Source: a virus. Taken from it: DNA of 20,224 nucleotides. Every line of letters starts with the position of its first letter. Within the stretch, counting starts at the first letter, position 1. Under the pieces are notes generated by a model, which ran no database searches, was not told where the DNA came from, and saw nothing but the letters and a program-made list of their open reading frames with translations. The DNA lies in the IMG/VR virus record IMGVR_UViG_3300003322_000591, positions 1 through 20,224 of that record, one strand, 5' to 3'. Made by a program: the position numbers and the translations under genes. Shown piece after piece: positions 903 through 17,116 of this stretch.

Positions 903-978
903 GCACCTCTAGCTCAACTGGCAGAGCAATTGACTCTTAATCAATGGGTTCCGGGTTCGAGTCCCGGGGGGTGCACCA
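903..978 (+). tRNA. tRNA-Lys, anticodon CTT, with encoded CCA
   Basis: The 76-base gene folds as a cloverleaf. The acceptor arm GCACCTC pairs with GGGGTGC (one G-U), then A and CCA. The anticodon stem ATTGA/TCAAT encloses the loop CTCTTAA, giving anticodon CTT (reads AAG, lysine). The T arm CCGGG-TTCGAGT-CCCGG is canonical. The prophage is integrated in this gene: bases 942-978 are the attachment core, repeated at 17032-17068, so the integrated element leaves an intact tRNA. Confidence 0.97.
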
Positions 979-1261
979 CATTCGATGAAACCCCTTCGCC
1001 TCCGGGCGAGGGGGTTTTGTCGTTAACCGGCTCCCCCGTTTCGAGCCACGCGAACGGCGCGCCCGTACGAAGCGCCCACAGCCTGAGCGACTGACGGCTG
1101 GGCACGATCCGCCCATTGATCCAGTTACTAACCGTGGTCCGCGATACGCCCAGGTACTCAGCCATGTCCTGAACGCTCACGTCAGAGACGCGAAGCGCTC
1201 GACGCAGGCGGTCCGCTAGGTCGAACTCCCAAACTTGCACATGTTCCGGTTGTTGGCTCAT
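941..1261 (-). CDS. XRE-type HTH repressor; prophage form truncated at attL
   Basis: This 106-residue protein is the probable lysogenic repressor. Its DNA-binding domain spans residues 14-65, with the helix-turn-helix around 28-50 (VQDMAEYLGVSRTTVSNWINGR), followed by a Pro/Gly linker (80-95) and a tail PPGLEPGTH that is simply the tRNA core read on the opposite strand. The stop TGA (941-943) uses base 941, which is tRNA sequence outside the core. In the circular phage the same codon would be TGG and the frame would continue W-L-R-V-A-A before a stop. I chose the ATG at 1261; an upstream ATG at 1315 would run through the control region, and neither start has a good ribosome site. It is transcribed divergently from the early genes. 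The HTH call is secure; the repressor role is inferred from position. Confidence 0.88.
   Translation of the reverse strand: MSQQPEHVQVWEFDLADRLRRALRVSDVSVQDMAEYLGVSRTTVSNWINGRIVPSRQSLRLWALRTGAPFAWLETGEPVNDKTPSPGGEGVSSNVVHPPGLEPGTH
942..978 (+). repeat. attL core, 37-bp repeat within tRNA-Lys 3' half
   Basis: The 37 bases from CAATGGGTT to the terminal CCA of tRNA-Lys are repeated exactly at 17032-17068. Identity ends abruptly on the right (CA versus AC). On the left it decays through the anticodon loop: 7 of 10 bases match between 932-941 and 17022-17031. This is the signature of tyrosine-integrase insertion into a tRNA 3' end. Confidence 0.95.
988..1018 (+). terminator. Rho-independent terminator for tRNA-Lys, supplied by the phage
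   Basis: A 13-bp stem (988-1000 with 1005-1017, one G-U pair) with a 4-base loop is followed by TTTT on the plus strand. It lies 9 bases after the tRNA and inside the 3' part of the leftward repressor gene, where it encodes the repressor's Pro/Gly-rich linker. On the minus strand the hairpin has only a short T run, so it should act mainly rightward. Confidence 0.8.
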
Positions 1262-1383
1262 GCGTCGATCATTGCACGTTGAGCAGGCATAACGCAATGA
1301 ACGACGCGCATACATTGTGACTTAGACACGCCGAACGAAGCGCGTTGCACATTGCAAAGTGCACCTTGTGCAACGCTTTATCC
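1262..1383. promoter_or_regulatory. Divergent control region with clustered operator-like palindromes
   Basis: This intergenic region separates the repressor from the rightward early genes. TTGCA-CAT-TGCAA (1345-1357) and TGCAC-CTT-GTGCA (1360-1372) are perfect short palindromes 15 bases apart. Both lie between the arms of a perfect 9-bp inverted repeat (1342-1350 GCGTTGCAC with 1368-1376). Further TTGC half-sites occur at 1271-1277 and 1293-1298, and TGCAAAGT recurs at 1353 and 1385. I could not assign confident -35/-10 boxes for either direction. Confidence 0.65.
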
Positions 1384-1587
1384 ATGCAAAGTCACTCCAT
1401 CCCCAACGAGCCGCGCATGGTGGTACCGGCCGACTTGATCGGCGTCGATGTCGCCTCCGAGATTCTGGGCATTAGCCACTCGGCAACCGTCCGCCGAGCC
1501 AAGAGCGGCACCATCCCCCTTCTCGCCCTCGTAGGCCGCTCCGGCGTGATGGTCTTCGACCGCTCCGACATCGAGGCGGTGAAGTAG
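1384..1587 (+). CDS. Small HTH DNA-binding protein, excisionase/Cro candidate
   Basis: This 67-residue protein is the first rightward gene after the operators. Residues 20-65 resemble the helix-turn-helix of the excisionase/MerR-like family: a DVASEILGISHSATVRRAKSG recognition segment, split here as residues 22-31 and 32-42, then a short hydrophobic wing (VMVFDRSDIEAV). The ATG at 1384 was chosen because the palindromes end just before it. There is no Shine-Dalgarno sequence, so the message may be leaderless; ATG at 1417 is an alternative. Position suggests a Cro-like antirepressor or recombination directionality factor. Which of the two cannot be decided from sequence. Confidence 0.7.
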   Translation: MQSHSIPNEPRMVVPADLIGVDVASEILGISHSATVRRAKSGTIPLLALVGRSGVMVFDRSDIEAVK

Positions 1588-9709: not shown

Positions 9710-10228
9710 ATGGCACGGTTTGTAGCGCCCAGCGCGACCAGTAGCCGCACATTTCGCGCGGTCGCGCTGGCGCTCAAACTGATCCCCCGCGAGGTGCGCA
9801 ACGACATCAACCGCACCACCCGCGCCGTAGCGAACCCCATGTGGCGCGAGGCCGTCAACGCCCGCGCCGTCACCCCCACGGACAAGAAAGTCCTCGCCAA
9901 GGGCGCACGCGTCGCCCCGGGCAACCCCCTGACCTTCATTGCCGCATCCTCCCGGCGTCCCCTGTCCGGGGGCCTCGTACCGGACGCTCAGGCCCGGGTG
10001 TTTGAGTTCGGCACCGCCGACCGGGAAAAGGTCACCGAGTACGACCGGTCCGGCCGTCGCTCCCAGGCCCACAAGGTCAAGCGGCACACCCGCCGACAGC
10101 TCCCCCGCTACACCGACAAGGGCCGGGTGATCTATCAGGCGGCCGCCGACGTCGCCCCGCGCATCACCTCCCTGTGGGTCCAAACCATCGTCCGCCGTAT
10201 CTACGAAGCACACGAGAAAGGCCAGTAG
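9710..10228 (+). CDS. HK97 gp10-like basic tail/neck component
   Basis: This 172-residue protein is strongly basic. LIPREVRNDINRTTRAVANPMWREAV (as two adjoining helical pieces, residues 24-49) followed by a VFEFGT segment resembles the HK97-gp10-like group of neck proteins, which usually lie before the tail tube gene. Here it sits after the tube gene, in the slot where a frameshifted pair of tail-assembly chaperones is normally found. Chaperones are therefore missing or replaced. Its stop overlaps the next GTG (TAGTG). Confidence 0.55.
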   Translation: MARFVAPSATSSRTFRAVALALKLIPREVRNDINRTTRAVANPMWREAVNARAVTPTDKKVLAKGARVAPGNPLTFIAASSRRPLSGGLVPDAQARVFEFGTADREKVTEYDRSGRRSQAHKVKRHTRRQLPRYTDKGRVIYQAAADVAPRITSLWVQTIVRRIYEAHEKGQ

Positions 10229-12159
10229 TGGCAATCAAAATTGACGTCATTACCGACGTCGCACAGGCCGTCTCCGGCACCGGCAAACTCGCGGACAAGT
10301 ACAACGACGTCTCCGATGCCCTCATGGACGTAGCCCGCGACGGCGACACCGCCGGAGACAAGATTGAGGCGGCATTCCGCGACGGCGCGAAAGACGTCAC
10401 GAAGACCGAACGAGCGCTCAAAGACGCCGGACGGGAAGGCACCCGCGCCGGAGACAAGATCGAAAAGGGCCTCCACGAAGGCACCACCGAAGCCCGCAAA
10501 ATGGACGACGCCCTGGACGCCCTCGGCAAGTCCGGCACCAAAGCCGGACGCGACATCGGGGACGGCATGGACAAGGCGTCCCAGGAGACCGGGGAATCGT
10601 TCAAGACCATCAAGGAAGAGGCCCGATCCAACCTCTCCGAAACGGTGTCAAGCTTCCGGGGCGACGCCGAGGACATCGGTCAAATCTTCCAGGATATCGC
10701 CGGTGGCGTCGTGGCCGACCTCGGCCCGACTGGCCTGGTCCTCGGCGCGGGAATCGCCGCCGGAATCGGCGTGGGCATTGCCGCCCTTCAGGGCTTCTCC
10801 GAGCAGGCCACGGCCGACAAAGAGGAGATCATCGGCATTGCCCAGGCGATCCGCGAGCACGGCGGCACGTTCGCCATGGAATCGGCGATCAAGGGCATGG
10901 ACGACTACGGCGACTCGATAGCCGACACCAAAGAGTGGTGGGAAATCTTCCAGCAGGAGGCATACTCCGGCTGGGAAGTGCTCCGCGACCAGGCGAACAA
11001 AACGGGCCTGAGCATGTCGGAGATGTTCTCCGGCCGGTTCGGCAATGACACCGCCCTGGCCGAGCGCGCACTAGCCAAGGTGGAGGACCGTCTGAAGTCC
11101 TACACGTCCGAGGTGGAGAACTCCCGCCGCGCCCAGCGCGAACAGGGCGAGCGGGTGACCATCACCACGAAGACCATGGAAGACCAAATCCGGGTCACGG
11201 AAGAGACTCGCGACAAGATCAAAGACCACATCAAAGAGATTCGCGCCGCCGAAGAAATCGAGCGCGCCCGCCGCGAGGCGATCAAGGGCACCACCGAAGC
11301 AATCAAGGAAAGCCTTGACGCCGAGCGGGAAAAGACCTCCGGCGCATCCAGCGTGATCGACGCCCAGCAGGACCAGATTCAGACCCAACGCGACCTTGCC
11401 GACGCGATCAAGGAAGAGGGTCGCTCGCGCGACATTTCGACCGAGGCCGGATCGAAACAGGTGGACCTCTGGCAACAGCTCGTGGCGGCCAAGAATGACG
11501 AAATTGACGCCATGATCCAGTCCGGCGCGACCGCCCCGGAAGTGGCATCCAAGTACAACGCCATGTACTCGTCAATGCTCTCGCAGGCCCAGAACACCTA
11601 CGGCCTGTCCAAGCAAGCGGCCGCCGACTGGCTGACTCAACTCGGCCTGGTCCCGCCCGAGAAGGTGACCGAGCTTCGCGTGTCCGGCAAGGACAAAGCC
11701 ATTGCCGACGGCAAAGAGGCCGCGAAGAAGGAAGAGAAGCCGGTCGATCTGACCGTGACCGGCGCGGACGGGGTACAGAAGCAAATCGCCTCACTCCCCT
11801 CGGACGTGCCCGTGCACGTCGGGGTGACCGAGCAGGGCACCGTGGGTATGACTCAGGCCGCTATCGACTCGATCCACGGTCACGACGTGCGAGTCGGTGC
11901 CACCGAGGAAGGCACCGCCCGAATGACTCAGGCGACCATCGACCGGGTTCGCGGGCATGACGTGCGAGTCGGTGCCACAGAGCAGGGCACGGCCCGGCAG
12001 ACCCAGGAGACCATCGACCGCATCCACGGCAAGGACGTTCCTATCCGCGCGCGGCTCGAAAACTACTGGGAGATTCGTCAGTTGCTCGACCAGCTGTCCG
12101 CGCCGCGCTCCGTGTCCGTGACCGTCAACGAAGTACCCGGAAGGAGGGTTGACCATTGA
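10228..12159 (+). CDS. Tape measure protein, short, with C-terminal repeats
   Basis: This 643-residue protein sets tail length. The first 155 residues are charged helix with Asp/Lys/Gly-rich repeats (DKIEAAFRDG, DKIEKGLHEG). A hydrophobic segment (about 166-189, glycine- and alanine-rich) is typical of tape measures and may act in membrane passage. A long coiled-coil region (290-440) and three 25-residue repeats (528-602) follow. It is short for the family; at the usual rise of about 0.15 nm per residue it predicts a tail near 100 nm. The GTG at 10228 shares a base with the previous stop; the next gene begins in its stop. Confidence 0.88.
   Translation: MAIKIDVITDVAQAVSGTGKLADKYNDVSDALMDVARDGDTAGDKIEAAFRDGAKDVTKTERALKDAGREGTRAGDKIEKGLHEGTTEARKMDDALDALGKSGTKAGRDIGDGMDKASQETGESFKTIKEEARSNLSETVSSFRGDAEDIGQIFQDIAGGVVADLGPTGLVLGAGIAAGIGVGIAALQGFSEQATADKEEIIGIAQAIREHGGTFAMESAIKGMDDYGDSIADTKEWWEIFQQEAYSGWEVLRDQANKTGLSMSEMFSGRFGNDTALAERALAKVEDRLKSYTSEVENSRRAQREQGERVTITTKTMEDQIRVTEETRDKIKDHIKEIRAAEEIERARREAIKGTTEAIKESLDAEREKTSGASSVIDAQQDQIQTQRDLADAIKEEGRSRDISTEAGSKQVDLWQQLVAAKNDEIDAMIQSGATAPEVASKYNAMYSSMLSQAQNTYGLSKQAAADWLTQLGLVPPEKVTELRVSGKDKAIADGKEAAKKEEKPVDLTVTGADGVQKQIASLPSDVPVHVGVTEQGTVGMTQAAIDSIHGHDVRVGATEEGTARMTQATIDRVRGHDVRVGATEQGTARQTQETIDRIHGKDVPIRARLENYWEIRQLLDQLSAPRSVSVTVNEVPGRRVDH
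11809..12033 (+). repeat. Three 75-bp tandem repeats in the tape measure gene
   Basis: Residues 528-552, 553-577 and 578-602 are imperfect copies of a 25-residue unit with the core VRVGATEEGTARMTQ and a closing IDRIHGH. The DNA copies are in frame and differ mostly by substitutions. Adding or losing a unit would change tail length in 25-residue steps. Confidence 0.85.
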
Positions 12160-15646: not shown

Positions 15647-15660
15647 CCGACTGACCTGGG

Positions 15661-15704
15661 CAAACAAGAAACCCGCACGGGATCCCGTGCGGGTTTCTTG
15701 TTTG
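15661..15704. terminator. Perfect 44-bp palindromic bidirectional terminator
   Basis: Every base from 15661 to 15704 pairs: two 22-base arms with no designated loop (about 20 pairs after a turn of four). The GC-rich centre is flanked by AAGAAA/TTTCTT and CAAACAAG/CTTGTTTG, so both strands give a hairpin with a T-rich 3' side. It separates the convergent late operon and the minus-strand integrase operon. Confidence 0.92.
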
Positions 15705-15709
15705 GCCGG

Positions 15710-15889
15710 CTATTTGCTTCCGAGGCGTTCAATGACTGAGAAAGCCCGCTGGATAGCCGCGAGGATGAGGAACGCGCCCAGCAGTCCCGGCACGAGCCAC
15801 GCGACCCACACAAGCCCGCCGATCCATGCCAGCCAAGCGACGACGAGCAAAAAGACGCCCGCCGGGAAGTAGTCAGTAGCCTTGTTCAC
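15710..15889 (-). CDS. Small two-helix membrane protein, possible lysogenic-conversion or exclusion gene
   Basis: This 59-residue protein has a GTG start at 15889 after AGGGGGAG. Two membrane segments cover about residues 9-30 (PAGVFLLVVAWLAWIGGLVW) and 31-48 (LVPGLLGAFLILAAI), with a charged tail (RAFSVIERLGSK). It lies 35 bases downstream of the integrase on the same strand and ends at the shared terminator. No family is recognised. Small membrane proteins in prophage integration modules often block superinfection, which is inference here. The membrane character is plain. Confidence 0.72.
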   Translation of the reverse strand: MNKATDYFPAGVFLLVVAWLAWIGGLVWVAWLVPGLLGAFLILAAIQRAFSVIERLGSK

Positions 15890-15924: not shown

Positions 15925-16755
15925 CTAGCTCGCCGCCGCCAGCACGGCGTCCCACGCGTCGTCGTCCTCAACCTCCGTGTAAATGGCCGTGGTCTCCGGC
16001 GTCGTGTGTCCCAGGAGGTCTTGCACGGCACGAATATTCTTCCCTCCCCGGTTGAAGGCGGCCGACGCGAACCTGTGCCGGAGCTGGTGGCCCGTGGTGC
16101 CCGTGCCGAGCGCTTGAGAGAGCCGCTTTGAGACCGTCGCGGCCGCTAGGTGGCCGTCGATCTGCCCAGGGAAGAGATAGCCCCCTGCGGAACGGATGAC
16201 GGCCGCCAGACCATCCGGACACGGGAGCACGCGGACATGCCCGCCCTTGCCCTGAACGCGGAGCTTCCACCCGCGGATGGACTGCACGAGGTCGTCACTG
16301 TGCACCCGGGATATCTCCACGCACCGGAGACCCATCTCCGCGCCGAGGCGGATCATGAGCGCGTCCCGCTGGTCCGCATGGTCCCGGGCGTACTTCCATA
16401 CGCCCTCACGGGCTGGACGCGGGCGGCCTCGCTTCGCCCTCACGCTGGGCAGTGCGGCCGCTGGGGCGTCACTGGTGCGCCCGGTGGCCTTCCCCCAGTC
16501 GTAGAAGCTCCTGAGCGCGCTCCTGTGGCTCCTGATCGTGGTTGAGTCCCAATCATGCGAGCCAATCCACGCGGCGAGTTCATCGCCGGTCATGCTCCAC
16601 GGCGACCGGTCCGGGAACTCACGTGCTAACCGGTTGATCTGAGTGCGCCGGAGGTTAAGCGTGGAAAGGGGACGCGCGGCGGCTCGGAGCCAATCGAGCC
16701 ACGCCAGCACGTCCCCTGACCATGCGTCCGGAATGGGTGTCTTCTGGACCTTCAT
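15925..16755 (-). CDS. int: Tyrosine-type site-specific integrase
   Basis: This 276-residue recombinase integrates and excises the phage at tRNA-Lys. The core-binding domain (about 15-95) has the SAM-like helical pattern with TIRSHRSALRSFYDWG. The catalytic domain shows all active-site residues: Arg144 (MGLRCVEI), Lys170 (VQGKGGHVR), His223 and Arg226 (HQLRHRFA), His250 (LLGHTTPETT) and nucleophile Tyr259 (AIYTEV). The N-terminal arm-binding domain is reduced or missing, making it short for phage integrases. The ATG at 16755 follows AGGGGAATC. The C-terminus, LAAAS, is close to but not an ssrA-like end. A weak promoter-like pair (TTGTGC/TATCAC, 19-base gap) precedes it on the minus strand at 16802-16772. 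Confidence 0.95.
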   Translation of the reverse strand: MKVQKTPIPDAWSGDVLAWLDWLRAAARPLSTLNLRRTQINRLAREFPDRSPWSMTGDELAAWIGSHDWDSTTIRSHRSALRSFYDWGKATGRTSDAPAAALPSVRAKRGRPRPAREGVWKYARDHADQRDALMIRLGAEMGLRCVEISRVHSDDLVQSIRGWKLRVQGKGGHVRVLPCPDGLAAVIRSAGGYLFPGQIDGHLAAATVSKRLSQALGTGTTGHQLRHRFASAAFNRGGKNIRAVQDLLGHTTPETTAIYTEVEDDDAWDAVLAAAS

Positions 16756-16803: not shown

Positions 16804-17016
16804 TCAGAAAAACTCCACGTCACGCGGGTGCACGTAGTCACTGGTGAAGTCATCCCAGAGCACCTTGAACCCCTTGTCATTGACTCGGGTGATCTTCGCG
16901 CACCGGCCGTCGCGGTACCGCACCCTCTGACCGACGATGGAACGGCGGTTCGCTTCTGCCTCTCCAACGAGGTCAAGCCATGTGAGCCACGCACCCAAGG
17001 GCGTCCCGGCGCTCAT
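16804..17016 (-). CDS. 70-residue protein adjacent to attR, SH3-like
   Basis: This is a small protein of unknown function. The ATG at 17016 lies 8 bases after AAGGG. Residues 26-70 (VGQRVRYRDG, CAKITRVNDKGFKVLWDD, YVHPRDVEFF) have the strand pattern of an SH3/KOW-like barrel. The start lies 16 bases from the attR core. In the excised circle the extended repressor frame would end exactly here, with its TGA overlapping this ATG (ATGA), so the gene belongs to a repressor-to-integrase operon that integration splits. A longer frame running back to 17277 crosses host DNA and the att core and is not the gene. Confidence 0.75.
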   Translation of the reverse strand: MSAGTPLGAWLTWLDLVGEAEANRRSIVGQRVRYRDGRCAKITRVNDKGFKVLWDDFTSDYVHPRDVEFF

Positions 17017-17031
17017 GCCGCAACCCTTAAC

Positions 17032-17068
17032 CAATGGGTTCCGGGTTCGAGTCCCGGGGGGTGCACCA
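17032..17068 (+). repeat. attR core, 37-bp repeat of tRNA-Lys 3' half
   Basis: The 37 bases equal 942-978 exactly. The sequence to the left is phage DNA that only partly mimics the anticodon loop (CCCTTAAC for CTCTTAAT), so no second tRNA is formed. To the right begins host DNA with the displaced tRNA terminator. Confidence 0.95.
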
Positions 17069-17071
17069 ACG

Positions 17072-17116
17072 AGTCCCGCTCGATCTGCTGAAAGGCAAGA
17101 TCGGGCGGGACTTTTT
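17072..17116 (+). terminator. Original chromosomal terminator of tRNA-Lys, displaced by the prophage
   Basis: A 15-bp stem (17072-17086 with 17098-17112, one G-U) with an 11-base loop ends in TTTTT. It starts 4 bases after the attR core, where the tRNA terminator would lie before integration. The following stretch to 17312 holds no convincing gene. Confidence 0.88.

What the first reader, a model, noticed from the sequence alone, without database searches (positions are those of the whole stretch)
16804..17068. Repressor, 70-residue gene and integrase form one operon only in the excised phage
In the reconstructed attP the extended repressor frame ends in TGA that overlaps the ATG of the 70-residue gene (17014-17016) as ATGA, the coupling used at many other junctions of this prophage. 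Such an exact join across an att site is unlikely by chance and is independent support for the viral repressor form. Integration would cut the integrase operon off from the repressor promoter about 16 kb away, shutting off integrase after use. This matches the repressor-attP-integrase order of BPs-type phages. The 70-residue protein sits at the hinge and could take part in the decision.
Basis: partly seen in the sequence, partly recalled or inferred. Interest (0 to 1): 0.75.

Follow-up and report, generated by a model that had tools for sequence, protein, structure and literature searches.

The report
Phage repressor-integrase operon split by integration
A small actinobacterial virus carries its DNA-insertion site inside its repressor gene, so that inserting into the host cuts off the repressor's self-destruct tail and separates the repressor from a small gene and the integrase; this is a known type of switch, seen here with an extra gene slot and a hairpin, probably a terminator, hidden inside the repressor gene.

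Summary
The window is a 16.1-kb prophage in a tRNA-Lys(CTT) gene, with attL at 933-978, attR at 17023-17068 and a 37-bp identical core. Joining the ends at attP turns the prophage repressor (ending ...EPGTH*) into a longer form ending ...GTHWLRVAA*. Its TGA overlaps the ATG of the 70-residue gene as ATGA, and the integrase follows.

Four of six reconstructed prophages with a truncated repressor show it (P about 3e-4). Viral genomes with an intact attP show it directly.

The mechanism is integration-dependent immunity, described for BPs and for the 17-kb Gordonia cluster CW phages. GMA5 already has a gene between repressor and integrase. This is a new member of a known kind.

Two features extend the picture. 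The gene between repressor and integrase is a variable slot holding largely unrelated small ORFs, nearly always ATGA/GTGA-coupled to the viral repressor. A strong hairpin lies about 5 nt past the tRNA end inside the repressor ORF (22 of 29 relatives), probably a replacement tRNA terminator. A decision role for the 70-residue protein is not supported. How integrase is expressed for excision is unresolved.

The parts
903..978 (+). host tRNA-Lys (CTT), restored across attL
   Evidence: ARAGORN
942..978 (.). attL: 37-bp identical core (the repeat extends to 933 with two mismatches)
17023..17068 (.). attR: core 17032-17068; phage-specific bases C17025 and C17031
941..1315 (-). prophage form of the immunity repressor (HTH_3/CI-type; likely start M at 1261); stop TGA completed by host base 941
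   Evidence: phrog_2328 E=5e-24
17013..17031 (-). [quoted passage not shown]
16804..17016 (-). 70-residue gene, ATGA-coupled to the viral repressor; C-terminal part predicted as a small SH3/tudor/KOW-like beta barrel (low confidence); no relative found
15925..16755 (-). tyrosine integrase, 276 aa, ends ...LAAAS
15710..15889 (-). 59-aa membrane-protein-like ORF after int, last gene before the terminator
   Evidence: reading of the sequence
15658..15707 (.). bidirectional terminator-like inverted repeat (25-nt arms) between the late genes and the int operon
985..1024 (+). hairpin (18-bp stem, 4-nt loop) inside the repressor ORF, 6 nt past the tRNA 3' end; probable replacement tRNA terminator
17073..17113 (+). 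the host's own tRNA-Lys terminator-like hairpin with T run, displaced to the attR side
   Evidence: reading of the sequence
1342..1376 (.). palindrome GCGTTGCACA-N15-TGTGCAACGC between the divergent rep and xis-like genes; candidate operator
1384..1587 (+). HTH_17/excisionase-like gene, divergent from the repressor

Best explanation
This is an integration-dependent immunity switch of the BPs / cluster CW kind. In the infecting phage one leftward operon is predicted to run repressor (long form, with an AA C-terminus of the ssrA-like kind) - 70-residue gene - integrase - small membrane ORF. The repressor stop codon overlaps the 70-residue start, so the small gene is expected to be translated by coupling. 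Integrase recombines attP, which lies inside the repressor gene, with the tRNA-Lys gene. That replaces the viral tail by a stop codon completed by the first host base, giving a shorter repressor expected to be stable, and moves the 70-residue gene and int 16 kb away from the repressor promoter. Shown: anatomy, sequence joins, homology, recurrence. Inferred: transcription from one promoter, proteolysis of the long form, integrase silencing. The 70-residue gene is most likely accessory cargo expressed only in the unintegrated state, not a conserved switch part.
For: attL/attR/tRNA geometry. The repressor's best PHROG is phrog_2328 and its relatives are the repressors of Rahul, Phayonce, GMA5, BPs-group Taheera and others. 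The integrase is closest to EricDab, Emperor, GMA5 and BPs-group phages. The viral repressor tail -VAA is matched by many relatives ending -AA. Independent about 16-kb prophages in Microbacterium, Cellulomonas, Leifsonia and Bifidobacterium have the same split: the attL stop is formed at the phage/host boundary and the longer frame returns at attP. ATGA or GTGA coupling is seen directly in viral genomes: GMA5, Gusanita, AGM1, Hedwig, PensacolaC28 (a gene in the slot); Angel, Taheera, Hibiscus (int directly); L139, L143, L162, L174 and others. The literature describes the same mechanism, including a host base completing the stop codon (PMC9262239, PMC8092301).
Against: No expression data. No attP copy of this phage was found in the virus collection. 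No sigma-70-like promoter was detected for the repressor or for int, so cotranscription is by analogy. A strong hairpin lies between the repressor promoter region and int, inside the repressor ORF, and could attenuate the transcript if not unfolded by ribosomes. The integrase ends AAAS, not AA. An AAGGG sequence 8 nt before the 70-residue ATG (17030-17024 on the minus strand reads TTAAGGG) could allow independent initiation.
Confidence: 0.87

Rival explanations
1. The 70-residue gene and integrase have their own promoter near attR, so integration does not shut integrase off; the ATGA join only couples translation of the 70-residue gene.
For: Integrase is needed for excision from the prophage, where Prep is 16 kb away. 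A host minus-strand ORF (17738-17313) points toward attR and could read through. An integrative element with state-dependent int promoters is known (ICEKp1, PMC13023037).
Against: No sigma-70-like promoter found between 15600 and 17300. In BPs the repressor and integrase are reported as one Prep transcript (PMC9262239).
Confidence: 0.25
2. The 70-residue protein is a working part of the lysis-lysogeny decision, for example by modulating integrase or the long repressor.
For: It sits between repressor and integrase and would be made only before integration.
Against: The position is empty in many relatives and filled by largely unrelated proteins in others. No relative of the 70-residue protein was found in viral contigs or phage records.
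Confidence: 0.12
3. The ATGA join at attP is a chance reading and the viral repressor simply ends a few codons past the core.
For: For this window alone the chance level is 1-7%.
Against: Four of six reconstructed prophages show it (P = 2.8e-4), and intact viral genomes show the same overlap directly.
Confidence: 0.04
4. The hairpin in the repressor ORF is a DNA-level site (integrase arm site or repressor operator), not a tRNA terminator.
For: Long palindrome next to the core; the T-rich tail is modest in several relatives.
Against: Arm sequence differs among relatives while position (median 5.5 nt from the tRNA end) and stem are kept. T residues are biased to the tRNA direction (3.6 vs 2.0 per 9 nt). 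The BPs type is reported to need no arm sites (PMC9262239).
Confidence: 0.2

Closest known systems
Gordonia cluster CW phages (GMA5, GRU3, McGonagall, Jeanie)
   Same: About 17-kb genomes, tRNA-Lys attB, reported 37-bp attP core inside the repressor gene. GMA5 gp18 lies between repressor and integrase with a 4-nt overlap (PMC5559632).
   Different: Integrase only 42-44% identical; no DNA match of the prophage in the phage collection; the 70-residue protein is unrelated to GMA5 gp18.
BPs / Angel / Taheera (cluster G) integration-dependent immunity
   Same: attP inside the repressor gene, repressor-int overlap by 4 nt, host base completing a TGA at attL (PMC9262239).
   Different: No gene between repressor and integrase, tRNA-Arg site in BPs, repressor tail KAS rather than AA, no comparable hairpin.
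Brevibacterium AGM1 and Arthrobacter Berka/Gusanita
   Same: Repressor followed by a 4-nt-overlapping small MSA-/VSA- gene; AGM1 has the same core peptide VHPPGLEPGTHWL.
   Different: The small proteins are unrelated by sequence; the annotated AGM1 integrase ORF is only 198 nt and no integrase is annotated next to the repressor in the Berka stretch read.

Membership tests
Integration-dependent immunity system | attP lies within the repressor ORF | tested here: met
   core 942-978 is inside the repressor frame in attL and the frame continues at attP
Integration-dependent immunity system | prophage repressor is shorter than the viral form, stop at the phage/host boundary | tested here: met
   GTH* versus GTHWLRVAA*, TGA completed by host base 941
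[quoted passage not shown]
   ends LRVAA; relatives mostly AA. Degradation itself not testable
Integration-dependent immunity system | integrase downstream, same strand, cotranscribed with the repressor | tested here: inconclusive
   order and strand met; cotranscription not testable
Integration-dependent immunity system | integrase carries an ssrA-like tail | tested here: not met
   ends LAAAS; not universal in the family (PMC8092301)
Integration-dependent immunity system | short repressor confers immunity, long form does not | not testable with these tools
   needs phage and host
Gordonia cluster CW phages | nucleotide similarity and shared gene content | tested here: not met
   no megablast match to any phage record; integrase 42-44% identical

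The most novel reading that the evidence does not exclude
Many members of this switch family carry two further layers. First, a hairpin terminator for the captured host tRNA is written antisense inside the repressor coding sequence right after the tRNA end, shielding the repressor from tRNA read-through in the lysogen. Second, there is a variable cargo slot between attP and integrase whose genes are coupled to the viral repressor's stop codon, so that they are expressed only while the genome is unintegrated.
Probability: 0.5. Interest if true: 0.55.

Novelty: new member of a known kind. Interest (0 to 1): 0.4.

Why it matters
It extends integration-dependent immunity to a 16-kb prophage family in Micrococcales-type hosts, and shows that independent lineages keep the same exact join at attP. 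The variable coupled slot and the embedded hairpin make specific predictions: genes expressed only before integration, and a tRNA terminator encoded in a repressor gene. Both are simple to test and were not described in the papers I could read.

Tried and rejected
Homologues of the 70-residue protein: none in viral contigs or phage records and no BLASTP alignment to GMA5 gp18. Its fold was predicted from a single sequence (pLDDT 75; only one of five models good); Foldseek gave only weak SH3/tudor/KOW-type matches (best E 0.03), so no function is drawn from it. Other copies of this phage's att flanks in viral contigs: none. Repressor relatives by pattern in viral contigs: none. Exact host: not found. 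The ilvD flank is at best 83% identical (Cellulomonas) and the right flank at best 76%, so the host is an Actinomycetales-type actinobacterium not closely held. A loose chance test that allowed GTG/TTG starts gave 20% and was replaced by an ATG-only test. L096 (Labedella) was examined and left out of the reconstructed set: its frame is not shortened at attL.

Full report
Observation. The window is a provirus record of 20,224 bp. A tRNA-Lys(CTT) gene at 903-978 is restored at the left end of a 16.1-kb prophage. The repeats 933-978 and 17023-17068 differ at two bases, and 942-978 is an identical 37-bp core. The minus-strand repressor ORF (HTH_3/CI-type; phrog_2328) ends in the prophage as ...VHPPGLEPGTH*. 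The last base of its TGA is host base T941. At the joined attP the phage base gives TGG, and the frame reads ...GTHWLRVAA* with its TGA in ATGA, the start of the 70-residue gene; integrase follows 48 nt later.

Is it more than chance? I kept the repressor plus core and joined it to every position of the same phage. An ATGA join to an ORF of 60 aa or more occurs at 1.0% of positions on the integrase strand and 6.6% on the other for this window, so one case alone is not strong. Six prophages with a shortened repressor at attL could be reconstructed: this window; Microbacterium L083 and L084; Cellulomonas L088; Leifsonia L090; Bifidobacterium L103. Four of them (window, L084, L088, L090) show the join, P = 2.8e-4. 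Phage genomes and viral contigs with attP intact need no reconstruction and show the same 4-nt overlap (ATGA or GTGA). A gene sits in the slot in GMA5, Gusanita, AGM1, Hedwig, PensacolaC28, L139, L143, L162 and L174. Integrase follows directly in Angel, Taheera and Hibiscus, and apparently in L145. Petra gp38 is an exception: it starts 8 nt after the repressor stop.

What it is. The literature describes the same design. Rep and int are cotranscribed from Prep, attP lies inside rep, the viral form carries an ssrA-like tail, and a host base completes the stop codon at attL (PMC9262239; PMC4557955; PMC8092301). [quoted passage not shown] GMA5 is noted as deviating by one extra gene of unknown function between repressor and integrase (PMC5559632). 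The original description (Broussard 2013) is not held in the library. The window's integrase and repressor are closest to this group, but no phage record matches the prophage at the DNA level.

The slot. Proteins encoded between attP and integrase are mostly unrelated to each other: the window's 70-residue protein (weak SH3/KOW-like model), a zinc-ribbon-like protein in L084, an HNH-like sequence in L088 (read by eye), and DUF6362-like helix-turn-helix proteins in GMA5 and PensacolaC28, with a similar one by eye in L143. Many relatives have nothing there. This argues that the 70-residue protein is accessory cargo and not a conserved decision component. Expression only in the unintegrated state is an inference from the coupling.

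The hairpin. Inside the repressor ORF, 6 nt past the tRNA 3' end, the window has an 18-bp stem. Across relatives, 17 of the 21 loci first tested have a hairpin in the most stable 1% of local 44-nt windows. In 22 of 29 loci a strong stem starts a median 5.5 nt from the tRNA end, with T residues biased to the tRNA direction (3.6 against 2.0 per 9 nt). The encoded peptides differ, for example PSPGGEGV in the window, QMIEGLSS in L083, ILDGLNP in L084 and LVGEVDD in L090, so the structure and not the peptide seems to be kept. The host's own tRNA terminator-like hairpin is displaced beyond attR (17073-17113). The simplest reading is a replacement tRNA terminator that also shields the convergent repressor gene. 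Many of these phages are related, so the counts are not independent; Angel and Taheera lack a strong one. The only held paper with both 'integration-dependent immunity' and 'terminator' is a genome announcement that I did not read further. The hairpin also lies on the path from the repressor promoter to integrase and could attenuate that transcript unless the repressor is being translated.

Limits. No transcripts, no stability data, no induction data, and no attP molecule of this phage was seen. How integrase is made for excision is open. The candidate operator GCGTTGCACA-N15-TGTGCAACGC at 1342-1376 is untested.

Verdict. Observation confirmed; interpretation right in kind, overstated in its chance argument and unsupported for the 70-residue gene's role. 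It is a new member of a known kind of switch, with a slot and a hairpin that are worth a systematic survey.

Noticed in passing
window 985-1024: Strong hairpin inside the repressor ORF just past the captured tRNA end; recurrent in 22 of 29 relatives and probably a replacement tRNA terminator.
   Followed up: yes
window 17025 and 17031 versus 935 and 941: The two phage-specific bases outside the core each have a plausible role: C17031 changes the TGA stop to TGG in the viral frame, and C17025 turns AAGAG into AAGGG 8 nt before the 70-residue start.
   Followed up: partly
window 1342-1376: Perfect 10-bp inverted repeat GCGTTGCACA/TGTGCAACGC between the divergent repressor and xis-like genes; candidate operator.
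   Followed up: partly
window 11811-12035: Three tandem 75-nt copies (68-72% identical to the first) inside the 661-aa ORF 10174-12159.
   Followed up: no
window 15658-15707 and 15710-15889: Bidirectional terminator-like repeat with 25-nt arms and a 59-aa membrane-protein-like ORF after integrase; several Gordonia relatives have a short ORF at the same place.
   Followed up: no
L083, L084, L088, L090, L103: About 15-17-kb prophages in Microbacterium, Cellulomonas, Leifsonia and Bifidobacterium; in the first four the restored tRNA ends match the window's tRNA-Lys.
   Followed up: partly
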